A stretch of 64,000 nt of DNA from Dermatophagoides farinae (taxonomy: Eukaryota; Arthropoda; Arachnida; Sarcoptiformes; Pyroglyphidae), in contig NC_134686.1 of the NCBI RefSeq assembly GCF_024713945.1, positions 186,001-250,000 of the forward strand, read 5' to 3'. Each line of letters begins with the position of its first letter. The first letter of the stretch is position 1. Below, piece by piece: positions 53,927 to 64,000 of this stretch. Under the pieces are notes generated by a model. The model did no database searches. It was not told the origin of the DNA and saw nothing but the letters and a program-made list of their open reading frames with translations. Both the position numbers and the translations under genes were made by a program.

Positions 53927-56305
53927 TTAGCAATTATGATTTTTATCTTGATTATCCGATATTATTTTTCTTTCATTACATAATTTGGTCAATTCTTGAT
54001 TGTATTTTTTCATTACATTTTGTCTTTTCAATTTCATTGATGCTGTTAATATATCATTATCAGGTGACCATACATCGGGCACTATTTTGATTCGTTTTGG
54101 AATTTCTATTTTAGTCAGCGAACTTTGTTTGGAAACATCAACGATTGCTTCAAGAAATGTTGATTCTATTTGTTTATCATTACATTTTTCTTCAATTGTC
54201 ATATTGTTTTTATCCATTTGTCGAGATAATTCTTCAAATGCTTTTTGATTCGGACTAATCAAAGCCACCAGTTCAGTTGCATAAATATCACCATATACGA
54301 ATGCATTTTCAATTAATGGACACATCTTTAATGCTGCTTCCACCTTTTTTTTATTGAGGATTGAAAAAGGAAAATGAAATCAAGTTTTTGATTTCAAAAA
54401 AATACATACCTTCCCCAACGAAATATATTCACCATTCTGTAATTTAATTAAATCTTTACGGCGATCAATAATTTTAACAAAACCATTTGGGAACATTTCA
54501 GCAATATCTCCTGTTCGATACCATCTGATTCTATTCTCATCAGTATAATAAACTTCTTTGGTCAGGTGAGGATTTTTAAAATATCCCATTGTAACAATTT
54601 CACCGCCAATCAAGAGTTCGCCACGAGGATTAGGACGATCGCGTACTGAATAGCCGCCTTCATCCCAATCTTGTAATCGAAAATATGCATTTGCCAGAAT
54701 TGATCCACAATTTCCATAATCGAGAGTTTCGAAATCCATACAAATTGGTGATGAAGTTGTTTCCGTACAGCCATATCCTTGAATGAAAATAACATCAAGT
54801 GCTGATTTGATTGTTGCTTGTGTTCGTGTATTTAATGGTGCACCACCACAAATCATAAACATTAATTTATTGCCAAATTGTTCACGAACTTTTGGACATA
54901 TTAATTTCGTTACAATGTTACATTTGTAGCCATGTCTTGTCCATTCTGATTTATAATTGGCAAGAAATCGAAAAACTTGTTGCGATACCGGTGTTCGAGC
55001 TTTTAATTTTTCATTAATTTCTTTAAGAATTCTCTCCAAAACCAATGGAACTGTTGTCATTATTGTTGGTTGCAATAATTTCATGTCTGATTTTTGACCT
55101 AAACCAAGACCGGGAGCTGAATCGGTTAAAGTAAATGGTGAAGCATAGCCAAGTCGAACACCACCTGTTGTAAAATGGGTAATTATCGAAAATGTAATAT
55201 TGAAATATCCTAAAATTTAGATTACCAAGAAAGAATAATAATTCCAGTGTCAATTCCAAAATATGTGCGGATGGCAAATATGCAACATAGATTTGTTTAT
55301 CTGTTTCATGTACCAAAGAACGAACGCGACAATACATTGCCTTCATCGAAACAAAAAGTTGATTTTCCGTAATCAATGCTGCTTTTGGATCGCCATTTGT
55401 TCCCGATGTATACATTATAATCATTAAGCGATCTAATGATCCGGAATATAATGGTTTATCACGCATTTCTTTTATACATTGTTCACCTAATCGTTCAATA
55501 CCATTCAATGAAAAAATCTTAATGTTTGATGGGAATTCAAAATCTGGTTTTTTGAATCCATCCATGAAAATAATTCTTTTCACTTTGTGTTTGGAAGAAT
55601 TAGCTAAAACCGCTTGTAATATTTGAATACATTCAAATGAAACAATAACAGTATCAACTTCAGTTTGTTCCAGCGAATATAATAGACCACGGGTTCCTAA
55701 ATTTGAAAATGCTGTAACTACAACAGCACCTGTTTGTGGAATGGCCAAAAACGATAGCATCCATTCGATTTTGGTTTCAGCAAAGATCATTATTCTATCA
55801 CCTTCGGTTATACCATTAGCCATTAAACCTTTTGCAATATTTCTTGTTGTTGTCTGTGCTTGTCCATATGTTATCCATTTATAATCACTGAGGTAATATC
55901 TTTTCAATTTACGTCCATCCATACGTCGTTCTTGACCTTTATCATTTAAAATGGATTCTTCTGAAAGCACTTGACGATAACCTAAATTAGATGTGGAAAG
56001 AGATGAATAAATTTAAAAAATTGTGTTTGCGCACACTAACCGAGACAATTACGATCACGATCCAAATGATCGGTCAATGATTGAAAAATTTGTGTTACAG
56101 ATTTATAGCTGAAAAATGGATAATCAAGAATTTCTGGATCATTACGTTCATAAATTGGTGACATTTTTGAATCATTACTTCCTTTAAATATTTTTATACG
56201 TATTCGATCATTCAAACGTTTAGCTTTCCATGGTTGTTGTACAATAAAATATAATGGCCATGTTGTCCATGTATAAATTTGTACAATCGAAATGAAAATG
56301 GTCAT
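53927..56305 (-). CDS. Long-chain acyl-CoA synthetase, ACSL3/4 type (copy A)
   Basis: Minus-strand exons are 56305-56041, 55981-55226, 55164-54410 and 54343-53927, joined in phase to about 730 residues, close to ACSL3/4 (about 710-720). The N-terminus has a hydrophobic stretch before WPLYFIVQQPWK, as in membrane-anchored ACSLs. The AMP-binding motif reads YTSGTNGDPKAAL at about residue 278. GYGCTETTS is at about 469. The fatty-acyl-CoA synthetase signature WYRTGDIAEMFPNG...DRRKD lies near 554, followed by [13 protein letters not shown]. The C-terminus has the usual LTASMKLKR lysine region. It turns long-chain fatty acids into acyl-CoA with ATP and CoA, probably at the ER or lipid droplets. 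The first motif differs from the common TTGxPKG by Asn and Ala. An in-frame stop lies just upstream of the chosen ATG. Confidence 0.9.
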
Positions 56306-56609: not shown

Positions 56610-58459
56610 TAAACTAACAAATTTGTTTGATGATCATCAGGTTTTTAAATTGAACAAACTGCGACAAAAAAAACATTGCGTCAACAGCTTGACAGTATAT
56701 TGTAATGTTACTATTACTATGATTATGATATTAGTAAATGCCGCAACCAGTGCTGTTTTTTTTTTTTTTTTGATTTATCATCAATTCTAACTATACAGCA
56801 CGACTTTCTATTGATAGGAATCGATTCAAAAAAAAAATTGCCATTGGCATCAATCGAAGTCTATATAGTGTGATCATAGCAGCGAATAAAATGGAAATTC
56901 ATGCTTGTTATTTTTAGAATTATTTTTTTTTTTTTTTTTTGTTGTTGTTGTTGTCAATCAACTTTTCATTTTTCATTGCATGATTTTAATTTATTTACTA
57001 TTTACTATTTACATTATTATTATATATCCATCTATTCATTTATCATTTTATTTTATTTAGACAGTTTTTTTCCAATGAAATTTTCCAATAAACTATTATC
57101 GTCTTTTATCTCTCGTTTTTTTTGTACCCTCTCATTGGTTATCTAGTTTTTTTTTATTCAATTTTAAAATACTGAATATTTCAACCAAGACGTCTTCATA
57201 CATTTACATAAAAAAACTGACTGGTTCTATCTGGATAATGTTATTAAATCAAGGTCAAGTTTTATTTTTTCCACCGTTGATCGAATCTATCTTGATTAAC
57301 AACATTAGATGGATTTTCAAAAAAAAAATTTTTTTATAAACAAATAAATAGTGTGTGTTACATTTTCAAATTATCAAATTTCCATAACGATTTATTGATG
57401 ATGATGATTGATCTCTCTGATCGATTCATCACTTGCATTGATAAAAGAGTAATCAAAATGAAAAGAAGAGAAAAAAGGATTGTACTGATTAAATGAACCG
57501 GAATTTTGCTTACATTACTAGATATTAAAATCTGGCTATAGTAGCAAGAAGAAGAAAGACATTCTAGGTCATCACTCTTTCTCTTTTTTGTTTGCCGATG
57601 CTCTTTCCGTACTGATGATGTAACTTGTTGATGACCTAAATATGACCACGAAAAAAAATTTTTAGCCACATCACACCACAACATAAACATTATCACAGAG
57701 TTTGACGTATGCAAACATTTTCCTTTTGATCGATTTCATATTATTATTATTGACAACGTAATTGTTTTTTCCCAATTTCAAGTAGCGTGTGGTCGATAAA
57801 CAAGATACTTTTTTTTCATGGGTCCAATCGAATTTTGTGACATAAAAAAAATATAATGTGTTTGTGTGTGCACTAAAAATCGACGCTTTTTTTTATCAAA
57901 TCAATGCTTTTTCGCTCGAATGATTATGATGATGTTGTTTGTGTATGAATGTATCACCAGAAAAAAGTTTGTTTGCCACTATCAATAATAAATTCAAAAT
58001 AAAAACTATTGTCTATGAATGATAAACACAAAAGAAAAATTTTTTTGATAATTTTTCGATAAATTTTGTCATTTTTTTTCGTCGAAACATCGTTCAGTGA
58101 CTCTCGGAAGTAATTGGTACATGGAATTTGATCGAATGATTGATTTAAATACAAATTGTACTTGATAAATTTAATTTTTCATTTTTTCATTAAAAAAATT
58201 ATTTTCATATGAATATCAAACCAGATCATCACCATTCAATTCAATTGTAAAACAAAACAATATATTTTGAATCCACAGAATATATACTGCTGCTGTTTGA
58301 TCACCAAAAAAAATGCTCACCGATTTCACAATGAAAACCATCATTCTTGAAATAATTCTTGTCATTTTCAACCTGATACAGCAATTTATCATACAATTAA
58401 AAGAGACTAATCTTGAATCCTGTATACTAATGTTTCTTTGAATTGTTTTTTTTCATTGT
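56610..58459. other. Intergenic DNA left of the retrotransposon
   Basis: AT-rich DNA with no recognised exon on either strand. The 118-codon minus frame at 57358-57714 is Ile/Ser-rich and looks like chance. The sequence runs without a break into the left target-site copy TTGT at 58456-58459. Confidence 0.5.
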
Positions 58460-58702
58460 TGTTGAAAAAATATCGGTCGATAGGTGGCGATAATTAACTA
58501 ACAAGAAATTGAGTATTGACCGTGATGAAGATGAATAGAGTTTCTTCTTCGTCGTTTATTTTTATGCTGTATTGATTTTTCTTATTTATTATGTTTTTGA
58601 TTTATATCGGTAAAGACATCGTATTATTAAATTATATGAAATAAAGTTTTCATTTTGTTGATCAGCGATCGTTTGTTTTTCTTTTGAGTATGTTTTACTA
58701 CA
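58460..58702 (+). repeat. 5' LTR of the BEL/Pao element
   Basis: This 243-bp direct repeat matches the 3' copy at 62560-62802 base for base as read. It begins TGTTGAAAAAATATCGG, ends TTTTACTACA, and contains AATAAA at 58640-58645, the likely poly-A signal; TTATATG just upstream might serve as a TATA-like element. Confidence 0.92.
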
Positions 58703-59114
58703 TTTACGTTATCAGCACCATATGATTGCCTCGCTAAGCAACATATTGGTTTTCGACGAACGAACGAACGACAAACGAACGAACGAACGAACGACAAACG
58801 AACGACAAACGTACGAACGAACGAACGAACGAAAGTAACGAACGACGAGAATAACAAACGACGGTAACGACGACGATCTATGACGACGAACGATCAACGA
58901 CGAATGACGGCGAACGATAACGATCAAACGAAATTAACGATAGCGAACGAAATTAACGACGACGAACGATAACGACGACGACGAATGAACGACGACCACG
59001 ACGAACGTAAACAACGACGAACGATTCAGCACGAGAACGAATAACGATAATCAACGAGCTACGAAATTAAACGTTCGAATAATCGAAAACCGCAACGACG
59101 AAACGAGAACGAAG
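58703..59114 (+). promoter_or_regulatory. CpG-rich, T-poor leader of the retrotransposon
   Basis: Between the 5' LTR and the ORF lies about 410 bp, most of it (58755-59114) built from ACGA, AACG and CGACG units with very few T residues. CG dinucleotides occur every few bases, unlike the AT-rich host DNA around it. A primer-binding site starting TGG is not found right after the LTR; the first TGG followed by a tRNA-like string is at 58747, 44 bp in. The leader probably holds packaging and translation signals (inference). It also contains short upstream open frames. Confidence 0.7.
58880..58972 (+). other. Upstream open frame in the retrotransposon leader
   Basis: A 30-codon ATG-to-TAA frame lies in the leader, about 140 bp before the main ORF. 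It is rich in Asn, Asp, Thr and Arg as a by-product of the ACGA repeats. Whether it is translated is unknown; it could tune initiation on the main ORF. Confidence 0.3.
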
Positions 59115-62100
59115 ATGGTTCTTACGAGGGCGGGTACCGAATACGGTGACGATATAAATCCGGAAATGCTGAGGAACGAAGTAAAGGATCTGGTTAAACG
59201 GATACGTATAAACAATATATCGATATTTCACCAAGGAGTAAAGGCTGCAATCAAAACGGGAAAAGTATTATACGATGAATACTACAAATATAGTAAGTTG
59301 ATTATCGAGGATGGAAAGTTCACATCCGAAGAAGAGAAACCGTTTGATGAAATGAAATCGATGGTGGATTTAGCGTTTAAATACGCACAAAGTATGGATG
59401 TTATCGAACGAAATTCCGAAAGGAATGATTTAACGAAATTTGAACGACAATTAACCGAAGATAAATGTAACGAAATCAGCCGAATCGCTGAACAATATCC
59501 ATGTATCGCGGATCATGTAATCAAAGTCGTCAATCGATTCCACGAGTTGAATGTAACGAAAAATCGAACGAAAACAATCGAAACGAATCCATCACGAGAG
59601 GGCGCTACCCAAAACAATCAATCATACGATACTATCGATGTCACGCCACCTGATGCAACACCAATATTAATGCCACAACCATCGACGTCAAGTAACGAAA
59701 ACAATCAACCGTTGTATACGATTTATCATCATCAAAAGCAATCGACATCGAATAGCGAAAGTGAACAACAGCAACAATCAACATCGAACGATAATCAAAA
59801 ACAACAGCAGCCGAATGCACCGTACGTAAATAATCCTCAACCATCGTCATCATCGTATAACAGTTATCGACATCCAAACGTTCCATATTATTATAACGGT
59901 CAATATTATTATTACAACGATCAAGCTTATTGGTGGGATTATAATCAATATCAGATGAACTGGTCGGGCGGAGCCAAAGTGGCCGCGAAGAAGCTTGAAA
60001 AATTCAACGGTGATCCTTTAGCATATCATACTTTTCGGAAAACGATTCAACATTACGTCGTCGACAATCCACAAATCAGAGGAAATGCTAATAAAATCAT
60101 GGAAATCATTGATTTGCTGCCGCACAAAGATCGCTACATCATCGAGTGCTTTAATCCAAATACATGCACAATGGTTTCAATAATGGCTGAACTCGACGAA
60201 CATTATGCCAGTCCCAATCGGATAATTCCCGCGCTAGTGGACCGACTTCGGAAGGCGCCGTTCTTATCATTGCGACCATCAGAACGAGACTGGGAGGCAT
60301 TAGTGGAAGTTACCATACTGATAAGAAATACATTATCAAGCGCAAATCTCGCTTCAGAAGAGAGATCGTTAGTGGGCGTGCTACTACAGAAAATCGATCG
60401 AGCACATTTCATGCATATCGGCGATAAACGTGCTATCACACTGGAGCAAATCTTACAGTACTTTAAAACAGGCCTCGATCGAGAACGAACGGCTATATCG
60501 CAGATCGCGTCCAGTGATCTGAATGTAAAATCGACTAATCGACCAAGCATGGTTGCAAATCGAACGACGAATAATGTAATGATGACTACATCGACAAACA
60601 CGTGCATGTTCGCCGACGGTAATCATAAAACAGAGAATTGTCCATTGACGATACAAGAACGACGACAAATTGCTATCGATAAACGAATGTGTTTCAGGTG
60701 TGGTGGTTTCCGACATAACAGTAAAGATTGTGATCGACGATTCAAATGTGACATCTGTAACAAGAATCATATAACGTATTTGTGCAACGATTTGAAACCC
60801 AAATCATTTCCACCAACCACGACAAACGAAATTGAATCAACGAATAATGCTAGTAATGATCAAACAGTACCGAAACAAATTGCTGAATCATCGGCGTCAA
60901 ATGTGAATCAATCATCGAAACAATCCGTAACAAACAATTTGTTGACACAAAACAGCACGAGTCTATACAAGACAACGATGGCTACGATTAACGGACGTAA
61001 CGTAAGAGTGTTGTTCGACGATGGATCAGGATCATCATTCATTTCACGACGATTAGCCGAATTATGGAAATTGCGAACCGATGAAGTTGAACCGATTTGT
61101 ATGGAAACGCTAAGTCAATCAACGCCTACTATTACCGGAAGTAAAGTGGTTTCATTATCGATCCCAATCTGTGATGGAAGCAACGAACATTTGAAATTCC
61201 GCATCAACGATAAAATAAATACATTACGATTCGATTGTGTAAATCATGAACAACAATTATTGATACGACAACAAAATATTCCGTTTTATGATGAACCAAA
61301 GATGGTAGATATTTTGATTGGTCTGGACAACATCAACAAGATACAGTTGGAAGATGAAAAACGATTATCGATCGATCTCGTGGCCAAACGAACAACATTA
61401 GGTTGGACAGTGTTTGGATTGTCAAGAAATTTGAACGGAGTGTTGTCATCATGCAAGAACATCGGTAACGAAATTGGTCCAGAACACAATGTCGATAAAG
61501 AATCCAAACTGATTATGAATAAAGTTATGACAAACTATTGTAAAACTGAAGATGTTAAATACGACGATTCGAGCAAACAATATTCAATCAAAGTACCGTT
61601 TATTATCAACGAAAAAATCGATCCAAATGTCAATGAAATTAAAGAAGTGATGAATCATATGTTGATGCAAATGAACGTTGACCGGCGAAAACAGTATCGC
61701 TCAATGATGAATGATATGGAAACAAAAGAAGTAATCGAACCGACGAAAATAGCACCGAACATCAGCTATCGTATACCGCATTTTGTGATTAGTCGAGATG
61801 ATGAAAAACAACCATGGAATAAAGCGATTTTTAAAGAAATCATATTGTGGGATATCGTTCGACCATTATTGAAGTTTTGCATGAAACCAATCGGTATAAT
61901 CAATGGTATACAATCTGTTTTTCATAATATCGAAATCGACAAGGAACATCGGGATTACGTACAGTTTTTGTGGTTGAATCTAGAAGACAATTCGATGTGC
62001 TATCGTTTTATCCGTCGGCCATTTAGAATATCGTCTAGCCCGTTTGTTACGATTGGAATTGCCGTAAACGTATCGGATGACGAAATAATGTCGCTAATTT

Positions 62101-62597
62101 ATGAAAAATCAAACTTAATCCAACGAAAAATTGTTATTGGTGAATTAATCGCATTATCATATGGAGCTATTAGAGCCAAATCGATTGAAGGAATGATTCG
62201 ACCTAAACATCTTATATTGTATTCCAATGTGACGAACAATGTAAAACGTTCTGAACGCAATATCAACCAATTTCAGTGTCCTGTGGCTGTACGTCTGTAT
62301 ACTATCAAATCGAAAGTAACCGATATCGACCTGGAAAGAAAATGTTATAACGAATGGCTTCAACAAATTGATGTGCCCCCAGATCCGTGGAAGCGAAGTA
62401 TCAATGAGGAGATGAGCAATCGAATTCCAATGTTAATGACAAAGATAATGTTTCGAATTAAGTCAATGAATGACAGATGTCGTCAATGGAGAACCAAGCC
62501 CGTGTCTGTGAATATTGATAATTGGCTATCTTGGAAATCGCCAAAAAACGGGGGAGGAATGTTGAAAAAATATCGGTCGATAGGTGGCGATAATTAA
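59115..62597 (+). CDS. BEL/Pao Gag-protease polyprotein with vestigial RT and RNase H
   Basis: The 1160-codon frame has no stop. Residues about 1-285 are a helical Gag part and a Gln/Asn/Ser/Tyr-rich linker. Residues about 290-460 match the Gag-like DUF1759 region. Three zinc-knuckle segments follow at about 497-557: the first lacks its second Cys, the second is a perfect CX2CX4HX4C, and the third is CX2CX3HX4C. An aspartic-protease-like domain (DUF1758) has FDDGSGSSFI and ILIGLDN and ends TTLGWTVFG. The reverse transcriptase part keeps its edges (RIPHFV, FLWL, SSPF), but the first catalytic Asp position reads NGIQ and no YVDD motif is present. The RNase H part keeps GELIALSYGAI, but the later Asp is Asn (LYSNV). 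No integrase is seen. The last 11 codons and the stop lie inside the 3' LTR. Any reverse transcription would need enzymes in trans. Confidence 0.85.
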   Translation: MVLTRAGTEYGDDINPEMLRNEVKDLVKRIRINNISIFHQGVKAAIKTGKVLYDEYYKYSKLIIEDGKFTSEEEKPFDEMKSMVDLAFKYAQSMDVIERNSERNDLTKFERQLTEDKCNEISRIAEQYPCIADHVIKVVNRFHELNVTKNRTKTIETNPSREGATQNNQSYDTIDVTPPDATPILMPQPSTSSNENNQPLYTIYHHQKQSTSNSESEQQQQSTSNDNQKQQQPNAPYVNNPQPSSSSYNSYRHPNVPYYYNGQYYYYNDQAYWWDYNQYQMNWSGGAKVAAKKLEKFNGDPLAYHTFRKTIQHYVVDNPQIRGNANKIMEIIDLLPHKDRYIIECFNPNTCTMVSIMAELDEHYASPNRIIPALVDRLRKAPFLSLRPSERDWEALVEVTILIRNTLSSANLASEERSLVGVLLQKIDRAHFMHIGDKRAITLEQILQYFKTGLDRERTAISQIASSDLNVKSTNRPSMVANRTTNNVMMTTSTNTCMFADGNHKTENCPLTIQERRQIAIDKRMCFRCGGFRHNSKDCDRRFKCDICNKNHITYLCNDLKPKSFPPTTTNEIESTNNASNDQTVPKQIAESSASNVNQSSKQSVTNNLLTQNSTSLYKTTMATINGRNVRVLFDDGSGSSFISRRLAELWKLRTDEVEPICMETLSQSTPTITGSKVVSLSIPICDGSNEHLKFRINDKINTLRFDCVNHEQQLLIRQQNIPFYDEPKMVDILIGLDNINKIQLEDEKRLSIDLVAKRTTLGWTVFGLSRNLNGVLSSCKNIGNEIGPEHNVDKESKLIMNKVMTNYCKTEDVKYDDSSKQYSIKVPFIINEKIDPNVNEIKEVMNHMLMQMNVDRRKQYRSMMNDMETKEVIEPTKIAPNISYRIPHFVISRDDEKQPWNKAIFKEIILWDIVRPLLKFCMKPIGIINGIQSVFHNIEIDKEHRDYVQFLWLNLEDNSMCYRFIRRPFRISSSPFVTIGIAVNVSDDEIMSLIYEKSNLIQRKIVIGELIALSYGAIRAKSIEGMIRPKHLILYSNVTNNVKRSERNINQFQCPVAVRLYTIKSKVTDIDLERKCYNEWLQQIDVPPDPWKRSINEEMSNRIPMLMTKIMFRIKSMNDRCRQWRTKPVSVNIDNWLSWKSPKNGGGMLKKYRSIGGDN
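62543..62559 (+). other. Polypurine tract
   Basis: AAAAAACGGGGGAGGAA sits directly before the 3' LTR and would prime plus-strand synthesis. It is also coding, lying within the last codons of the polyprotein. Confidence 0.8.
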
Positions 62598-62802
62598 CTA
62601 ACAAGAAATTGAGTATTGACCGTGATGAAGATGAATAGAGTTTCTTCTTCGTCGTTTATTTTTATGCTGTATTGATTTTTCTTATTTATTATGTTTTTGA
62701 TTTATATCGGTAAAGACATCGTATTATTAAATTATATGAAATAAAGTTTTCATTTTGTTGATCAGCGATCGTTTGTTTTTCTTTTGAGTATGTTTTACTA
62801 CA
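62560..62802 (+). repeat. 3' LTR of the BEL/Pao element
   Basis: This is a direct repeat of 58460-58702, identical as read, including AATAAA at 62740-62745. Its first 38 bp carry the end and stop codon of the ORF. It is followed by the right TTGT target-site copy at 62803-62806. Confidence 0.92.
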
Positions 62803-62806
62803 TTGT

Positions 62807-63247: not shown

Positions 63248-64000
63248 TCAATTTTTATACATTTCATTGATAGTTTCTTCATAAAATTTTTGTATTTCAC
63301 GACGTTTAATCTTGAGAGAAGCGGTCAAGAAACCACTGTCCATTGACCATTCTTTGGAACATAATTTTATCTTTTGTGGTGTTTCCATTTTGTGCAAACC
63401 AACTTCGGCACAGAATTGTTTCAATTCCGTAAGAATTCTATTCAATATTTCTGGATCTTCACATTGTTCTTCGAACGACAGATTTGATTTATTCATTTCT
63501 TGTGCTAAACGGGCCAAATTTGCACGTGATGGTGATATCAATGCAATCACATATGTATGCATTGAATCGCCATAAATACAAATGTTTTCAACATATGAAA
63601 AAACTTTCAATTCCGTTTCCACCTATTAATATGAATTAATTGGTTGATAATTAATTGAAATAAAATATAATTATTACAAACATACTTTACCCAATGAAAT
63701 ATATTCACCAAATTGTAATTTAACTAAATCTTTTTTACGATCAATAATTTTGATGGCACCAATTTTATTTATCTCACCAATATCTCCCATTTTAAACCAC
63801 CAGATGCCATCTTTATCTTCGAATGATTCTGCAGTTTTTTCTGGAAGTTTGAAGTAACCTTTGGAAATTGATTTACCACCAATTACCAATTCGCCACGTG
63901 GATATGGTTTATCGTGAACCGAATATCCACCTTCGGTCCAATCTATCAAACGAATTTTGACACCTTTCAATGGTGTACCAACATTACCTATGGATAGATC
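63248..64000 (-). CDS. Long-chain acyl-CoA synthetase, ACSL3/4 type (copy B, C-terminal part)
   Basis: Two minus-strand exons are visible: one from the window edge to 63686, and 63622-63248, joined in phase 0 across a 63-bp intron. The visible 230 residues cover the end of the enzyme: the [16 protein letters not shown] strand, [31 protein letters not shown], the [12 protein letters not shown] signature, [14 protein letters not shown], and LTASLKIKR near the C-terminus. The ACSL signature usually reads W-x-x-TGD; here the Thr is Met (FKMGD). The exon boundary after SLGK is the same as in copy A, so the two are tandem duplicates with diverged sequence. They share orientation and are split by the retrotransposon and spacer DNA. 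The gene continues beyond 64000. Confidence 0.85.

What the first reader, a model, noticed from the sequence alone, without database searches (positions are those of the whole stretch)
58460..62802. Recently inserted BEL/Pao element that kept a long ORF but lost RT, RNase H and integrase function
Two 243-bp LTRs read as identical, TTGT flanks both sides, and the polypurine tract is intact, so the copy looks young. Yet the only ORF (1160 codons, no stops) lacks YVDD, has NGIQ where the first RT Asp should be, has Asn at an RNase H Asp, and has no integrase. A decayed copy would be expected to show stops. A clean Gag-protease ORF with internally reduced enzyme domains suggests a family of compact derivatives whose Gag is still selected, mobilised by a full-length partner.
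Basis: partly seen in the sequence, partly recalled or inferred. Interest (0 to 1): 0.75.

Follow-up and report, generated by a model that had tools for sequence, protein, structure and literature searches.

The report
Compact gag-protease retrotransposon family
This is one of four closely similar copies of a shortened jumping element, in what is probably a mite genome, that still encodes its own coat protein and protease but has lost its copying and inserting enzymes, so it very probably moves with enzymes made by other elements.

Summary
The window copy has identical 243-bp LTRs, a TTGT target-site duplication, a polypurine tract and one open frame of 1160 codons. Its genome holds three more copies with the same internal deletions, each with its own 4-bp duplication. 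Compared with full-length BEL/Pao relatives, the frame keeps Gag and protease, but has lost the YVDD block, RNase H residues and the integrase core through in-frame deletions. Between window and C4 copies, Gag core to protease is under purifying selection (ratio 0.20, p 1.4e-10); the eroded pol tail shows no detectable constraint (0.69, p 0.48). The youngest copies show little or no constraint over the whole frame. Two further compact families with different deletions occur in the same genome. No full-length element with matching LTRs was found; two longer relatives (C7, C6) share the primer-binding 14-mer, and the closest pol-bearing relative found is a fossil. Best reading: a semi-autonomous Gag-protease element mobilised in trans, a new variant of a kind known from plants and mouse IAP. 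Mobilisation is inferred.

The parts
58456..58459 (.). left target-site duplication TTGT
58460..58702 (+). 5' LTR, 243 bp, TG...CA
   Evidence: 100% identical to the 3' LTR
58707..58720 (+). primer-binding region CGTTATCAGCACCA, shared with family B and with C7 and C6; called PBS from its place after the 5' LTR
   Evidence: genome pattern search, 12 places; contexts; primer RNA not identified
58756..58861 (+). ACGA-rich leader repeat; the leader varies in length between copies
59115..59969 (+). Gag N-terminal part (residues 1-285; boundary set by me)
   Evidence: ORF; the C6 copy of family B begins MVLTR too
59970..60614 (+). Gag core (residues 286-500)
   Evidence: homology to the same region of longer relatives; no Pfam family over cut-off
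60615..60950 (+). nucleocapsid part with zinc-knuckle-like Cys/His motifs (residues 501-612)
   Evidence: no Pfam zinc knuckle match in this piece
60951..61424 (+). aspartic protease (residues 613-770, motif LFDDGS)
   Evidence: Pfam Asp_protease_2, RVP_2 and Peptidase_A2B over cut-off; C7 and C6 have FDDGA
61695..62048 (+). RT remnant: 15-codon loss at about 61808/61809, first Asp replaced (NGI), YVDD block missing at its end
62046..62051 (+). junction of the largest internal deletion (about 197 codons, from after SSSPF to past the first RNase H Asp)
62049..62327 (+). RNase H remnant (SDS to SNV; end lost at about 62328)
62328..62549 (+). remnant up to the integrase zinc region; catalytic core absent
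62550..62559 (+). polypurine tract GGGGGAGGAA, inside the open frame
62560..62802 (+). 3' LTR; the open frame ends 38 nt inside it (62597)
62803..62806 (.). right target-site duplication TTGT

Best explanation
A recently inserted copy of a small, semi-autonomous BEL/Pao family (family A, 4 copies found). The element transcribes from its LTR, translates Gag and protease plus an enzymatically dead remnant of pol, and packages its RNA in particles built at least partly from its own Gag. Reverse transcriptase, RNase H and integrase come in trans from full-length BEL/Pao elements, possibly of the lineage that shares its primer-binding region (C7/C6-like). Shown: family, deletions, recent independent insertions, selection on Gag core to protease between window and C4 copies, mosaic divergence between those copies. 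Inferred: transcription, particle formation, supply of enzymes in trans.
For: 4 copies at 4 loci, each flanked by its own 4-bp duplication (TTGT, ATAT, GGGG, CAGC), same deletions, LTR pairs identical in 3 of 4. Catalytic residues or blocks of RT, RNase H and integrase are missing in the window copy, and no indel that would restore them distinguishes the other three. Gag core to protease between window and C4 copies: 37 synonymous against 26 nonsynonymous differences, ratio 0.20, p 1.4e-10; eroded RT-RH-IN tail 3 against 8, ratio 0.69, p 0.48. Family B (C2-C6 pair) shows a like contrast: Gag+PR 0.35, p 0.011; tail 0.76, p 0.67. Synonymous divergence between window and C4 copies is patchy (37 of 323 sites in one block, 11 of 402 elsewhere, p 3e-6; leader 2 of 412 sites, LTR 21 of 239), as template switching between co-packaged RNAs would give. 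The primer-binding 14-mer is shared with C7 and C6. In the NC-PR tree (11 rows, midpoint root) A groups with C7/C6, support 96/99.
Against: No full-length element with matching LTRs was found. C7 and C6 are only 33-48% identical in protein, by piece; their LTR regions show no similarity to the A LTR; the ends of the C7 LTRs are damaged and the C6 Gag start is split over several frames. Only 4 copies were found. Between close copies the whole frame shows little or no constraint: C10-C2 3 synonymous, 2 nonsynonymous; C10-C8 7.5 and 15.5, ratio 0.54; C2-C8 4.5 and 17.5, ratio 1.02. The selected block may have come by recombination from a full-length lineage, so the constraint need not have acted on compact copies. 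Gag N-terminus shows no constraint. Family B Gag alone is not significant (0.42, p 0.067). No expression data.
Confidence: 0.75

Rival explanations
1. Purely parasitic element: its own Gag is dispensable, and it is moved wholly by the Gag and enzymes of a full-length element. The selection signal was inherited from an autonomous lineage by recombination.
For: The divergence between window and C4 copies is mosaic and concentrated in Gag core-PR, so the constrained block could be imported. The close copies C2 and C8 differ at ratio 1.02 over the whole frame. Gag N-terminus is unconstrained. One of three family B copies (C9) has a broken frame (open frames 669 and 409).
Against: Families B and C show constraint between copies: B Gag+PR p 0.011 (C2-C6), Gag-to-PR stretch p 0.0022 and 0.0091 (pairs with C9); C piece between C1 and C4 ratio 0.20, p 1.9e-6 (that the C4 copy is compact is inferred from its LTR spacing). 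All 4 A frames stay open through Gag-PR.
Confidence: 0.22
2. Interfering element: the compact Gag with its dead pol tail co-assembles with full-length Gag-Pol and lowers the mobility of full-length elements, so it is retained as a brake that also spreads itself.
For: The closest pol-bearing relatives of A that I found survive only as fossils (L019, L033).
Against: No functional data; fossils of full-length elements are ordinary; other long BEL/Pao frames occur in pairs with equal scores and lengths, which suggests recent activity.
Confidence: 0.1
3. Single dead-on-arrival copy or assembly artefact.
Against: Four loci, four different duplications, identical deletion boundaries.
Confidence: 0.01

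Closest known systems
RLG_Quinta with RLG_Cereba (einkorn wheat), PMC11302176, passages seen
   Same: Short element with intact Gag, no RT or IN; primer-binding site conserved with an autonomous partner; Gag region recombined between its lineages while the rest stays over 90% identical
   Different: Plant centromeric element whose partner shares parts of the LTRs; here BEL/Pao in an animal, protease and an in-frame pol remnant kept, no matching-LTR partner found
RLG_Sabrina_SA and RLG_WHAM 'semi-autonomous' GAG-Pro elements (wheat), PMC9744471, passages seen
   Same: Gag-protease ORF, RT and IN absent, very little homology to a proposed partner
   Different: Gypsy, plant, thousands of copies (5397 Sabrina_SA)
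TR-GAG elements (plants), PMC8704663, passages seen; Chaparro 2015 seen only as a reference
   Same: LTR element with a single Gag ORF; one new insertion observed in ddm1 Arabidopsis
   Different: Gag alone; a potentially autonomous element of the same subfamily is suggested as partner
IAP 1-delta-1 (mouse), PMC6466679, one passage seen
   Same: Internal deletion gives one fused Gag-Pol-remnant ORF; needs proteins in trans; fusion reported to act in cis
   Different: Endogenous retrovirus, one 1.9-kb deletion that also removes part of gag
roo/rooA (Drosophila), PMC3087523, passages seen; that roo is BEL/Pao is recalled
   Different: Copies described as short, some with stop codons; no intact Gag-PR family in the passages seen

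Membership tests
BEL/Pao (order LTR) elements | LTR pair with TG..CA, 4-6 bp duplication, PPT and PBS region (recalled) | tested here: met
   4-bp duplications in 4 of 4 copies; primer not identified
BEL/Pao (order LTR) elements | Single Gag-PR-RT-RH-IN frame homologous to Pao elements | tested here: met
   Remnants align collinearly with C7, C6, C4b, C8b; C7 and C4b score Peptidase_A17 'Pao retrotransposon peptidase' and DUF5641 over cut-off. The window frame itself scores only weakly for DUF1758, below cut-off
BEL/Pao (order LTR) elements | Functional RT, RNase H and integrase | tested here: not met
   hence a non-autonomous derivative, not a complete BEL/Pao element
Semi-autonomous GAG-Pro elements (Sabrina_SA/WHAM/Quinta type) | Intact Gag(-protease) ORF with RT and IN absent, in several copies | tested here: met
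Semi-autonomous GAG-Pro elements (Sabrina_SA/WHAM/Quinta type) | Gag kept by selection | tested here: inconclusive
   Window-C4: Gag core-PR ratio 0.20, p 1.4e-10, Gag N-terminus 1.31; C2-C8 whole frame 1.02; recombination from elsewhere possible
Semi-autonomous GAG-Pro elements (Sabrina_SA/WHAM/Quinta type) | Autonomous partner sharing LTR ends, PBS and PPT | tested here: inconclusive
   PBS 14-mer shared with C7/C6; LTRs not similar
TR-GAG | A single ORF encoding Gag only (as in PMC8704663) | tested here: not met
   protease kept and pol remnants kept
IAP 1-delta-1-like | Fusion protein acts in cis | not testable with these tools
   needs an experiment

The most novel reading that the evidence does not exclude
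In one small genome three BEL/Pao lineages independently became short Gag elements by losing pol in steps that keep one frame open through the polypurine tract into the 3' LTR. This suggests a filter acting on frame length or on the tail itself (for example RNA surveillance against long 3' untranslated regions, or a tail used in particle assembly or in recruiting the partner's enzymes).
Probability: 0.3. Interest if true: 0.72.

Novelty: new variant of a known kind. Interest (0 to 1): 0.55.

Why it matters
Semi-autonomous Gag elements are described in grasses and, in another form, as mouse IAP deletions. The listings of my searches showed none for BEL/Pao or for mites; the library holds only open-licence papers, the longer lists were capped, and I opened only seven papers. 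Three such families in a 62-Mb genome would mean that keeping Gag while discarding enzymes is a repeatable outcome in animal LTR elements, and a small genome with few copies is a tractable place to test who supplies what.

Tried and rejected
Assembly artefact and single copy: rejected by four loci with four duplications. C7 as a matching-LTR partner: LTRs not similar. Longer family-C-like element at C4:3734281-3740262 as a full-length partner: in its middle 2.5 kb I saw a repeat array beside a Gag-protease frame 93% like family C, and no pol; the rest of it was not read. Shared origin of the A and B deletions: not supported. A keeps RT up to SSSPF and loses the connection; B appears to lose the palm and keep a connection-like stretch, by a weak pairwise alignment; and the NC-PR tree puts A with C7/C6. 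The Gag tree does not resolve it. Primer as a tRNA-Ile half read through inosine: not supported; no such tRNA gene was found by pattern, and none of the 20 tRNA genes read matched (20 of 62 listed), so the primer is unidentified. Target-site duplication of the C4b element: not resolved, LTRs 88% alike. Structure prediction of the Gag core: the machine was busy each time, never run. Family B copy C9 has a broken frame and counts against universal frame retention.

Full report
Setting. The window is C10:186001-250000 of a genome of 62,435,336 bases in 22 contigs. The host is probably an astigmatan mite: of 7 ML-domain matches I read 3 and searched 2, and both match Der p 2 or Der f 2 best among solved structures. 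This is an inference, not an identification. By my reading of translated ORFs, with no family search, the element lies between two long-chain acyl-CoA synthetase-like genes on the minus strand (54380-56012 and 63248-63622).

Observation. The LTRs, duplication, PPT and 1160-codon frame are as stated. Pfam finds an aspartic protease over cut-off, nothing over cut-off in the Gag pieces, and nothing in the last 258 residues. Relatives supply the rest: the Gag core matches longer elements, and the tail aligns collinearly with RT, RNase H and the integrase zinc region of C7, C6, C4b and C8b. C7 and C4b themselves score RVT_1, Peptidase_A17 and DUF5641 over cut-off.

Anatomy of the loss. From positions in C7 and in the window (subtraction by me), the frame lacks about 15 codons in the RT fingers, about 197 codons from after SSSPF (including YVDD) to past the first RNase H Asp, and about 59 codons of the RNase H end; more is missing in the integrase zinc region, where the alignment is weaker, and the whole integrase core is gone. 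Flanking blocks stay in one frame. For the three clear deletions alone, chance retention of frame is 1 in 27, suggestive only. The first RT Asp and an RNase H Asp of the surviving blocks are also replaced. The protease motif FDDGS resembles FDDGA of C7/C6, so there is no sign of protease decay at that motif.

Family. An LTR search of the genome gave 8 matches, all in 4 pairs: C10 (window), C2, C8, C4 (the tool warns that counts are lower bounds). LTRs of the C4 copy are 88% identical to the window's, the others 97-98%. Each copy has its own 4-bp duplication (TTGT, ATAT, GGGG, CAGC). LTR pairs are identical in 3 of 4; in C8 the two differ in length by one base. Frames are 1160 (C10), 1160 (C2), 1149 (C8) and 1161 (C4) codons; the C8 frame ends early after a 1-bp loss in the PPT. 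Copy-to-copy indels lie in the LTR and leader, plus one 3-bp insertion in the frame (C4) and that PPT loss, so all four share the deletion boundaries. No unpaired LTR was found. The leader (window 58700-59130) occurs in the four copies and otherwise only as a 40-base match on C5.

Selection and recombination. Between window and C4 copies: codons 286-770 have 37 synonymous and 26 nonsynonymous differences, ratio 0.20, p 1.4e-10; codons 1-285 have 3 and 16, ratio 1.31; codons 901-1145 have 3 and 8, ratio 0.69, p 0.48. Against the reading, the three close copies show little or no constraint over the whole frame: C10-C2 3 and 2; C10-C8 7.5 and 15.5, ratio 0.54; C2-C8 4.5 and 17.5, ratio 1.02. Numbers are small, and most copies are expected to drift once inserted. 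The synonymous difference between the 286-770 block and the rest of the frame is significant (p 3e-6). With a leader differing at 2 of 412 sites and LTRs at 21 of 239, the C4 or the window copy looks recombinant. The constraint on the Gag-PR block may therefore have been exerted partly in another lineage. Against a fossil relative (L019) the RT remnant shows ratio 0.22 over about 53 codons, so most of that divergence passed under constraint and the loss of function in A is probably younger than that split.

Relatives in the same genome. Family B (C2, C6, C9) has LTR pairs of about 246-250 bp, identical or nearly so, and duplications GCAG, CCAA, TTGT by my reading of the flanks. It has the same PBS 14-mer and a similar PPT, a Gag-PR frame and a differently eroded tail. 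Frames are open in C2 and C6 and broken in C9 (2 of 3 open). Family C (C1, C2, C3) has 225-bp LTRs, identical in the C1 copy, a GCACTT repeat at its flanks and a different PBS region; frames of 975, 991 and 976 codons; Gag and part of RT kept, the YMDD block lost. C1 and most of C2 were read; C3 is known only from its rows. A C4 copy carries a repeat array, and one LTR at C4:3107475 has only a weak partial match near it. In A, B and C the frame runs through the PPT into the 3' LTR, by 38, 14 and about 150 nt. The C7 frame also crosses its PPT, ending about 5 nt inside the LTR by my count, so crossing the PPT is not peculiar to compact forms; in C4b the frame ends before the part that aligns as LTR. 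Selection: B, C2-C6 pair, Gag 0.42 (p 0.067), Gag+PR 0.35 (p 0.011), tail 0.76 (p 0.67); pairs with C9 0.31 (p 0.0022) and 0.39 (p 0.0091) over the Gag-PR stretch held; C piece between C1 and C4 copies 0.20, p 1.9e-6, while C1-C2 has 3 differences in all.

Partner. The primer-binding 14-mer occurs 12 times: 4 in A, 3 in B, 1 each in C7 and C6, 1 in a truncated relative (C3:6728165) and 2 unassigned; the reversed-pattern control gave 1. C7 has an open frame of 1699 codons; the C6 frame is 1433 with its Gag start split over frames. No full-length copy with A LTRs was found. The nearest pol-bearing relatives of A are fossils: L019, 74% over 54 residues, with the first RT Asp and thumb still visible, and L033; L059/L060 are Gag fossils. 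Peptidase_A17 matches occur at 19 places, 15 of them in open frames above 690 codons, some in pairs of equal score and length. So full-length BEL/Pao families that could supply enzymes exist, but I cannot say which does.

Mechanism. Shown: loss of enzymes, recent independent insertions, constraint on Gag-PR between two copies, mosaic copies. Inferred: LTR transcription, particle assembly with own Gag, RT/RH/IN in trans. The IAP 1-delta-1 precedent, where the fusion acts in cis (PMC6466679, one passage), and the Gag-supply model of Quinta/Cereba (PMC11302176, passages) both fit. My data do not separate them.

Novelty. Semi-autonomous Gag-PR elements are a known kind (PMC9744471, passages; PMC11302176). 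A BEL/Pao case in an arthropod, three times in one genome and with a pol remnant kept in frame, did not appear in the listings of my searches, of which I opened seven papers in part. Culex CM-gag, seen only as a reference title in PMC3286476, is an earlier mosquito element said to contain only a gag gene.

Noticed in passing
window 58756-58861: The leader holds an ACGA-rich, T-poor tandem array; leader length differs between copies (+31 in C2; +8, +6, +3 in C8).
   Followed up: partly
G000:C8:2684120 (L005 585) and C5:4364775 (L082): Two further copies of the primer-binding 14-mer not assigned to any element; the C8 one lies about 0.9 kb from a family A copy.
   Followed up: partly
G000:C4:6128540-6139595: Four near-identical matches to a tRNA-like pattern at spacings of about 2.3, 2.3 and 6.4 kb, suggesting a tandem array.
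   Followed up: no
L053, L076 (C7:1594-1601k): The C7 element has LTRs 98.9% alike over 446 bp, but the start of the 5' LTR and the end of the 3' LTR seem to be missing, and no duplication was seen.
   Followed up: partly
contigs C11-C21 of G000: 37 of the 62 tRNA genes listed lie on small contigs (157-645 kb for the seven whose length was shown); these may be unplaced or foreign.
   Followed up: no
L104 (C4:3736300-3738800): A family C copy with a repeat array next to its Gag frame; its protease motif reads FGYGS where C1 has FDYGS.
   Followed up: partly
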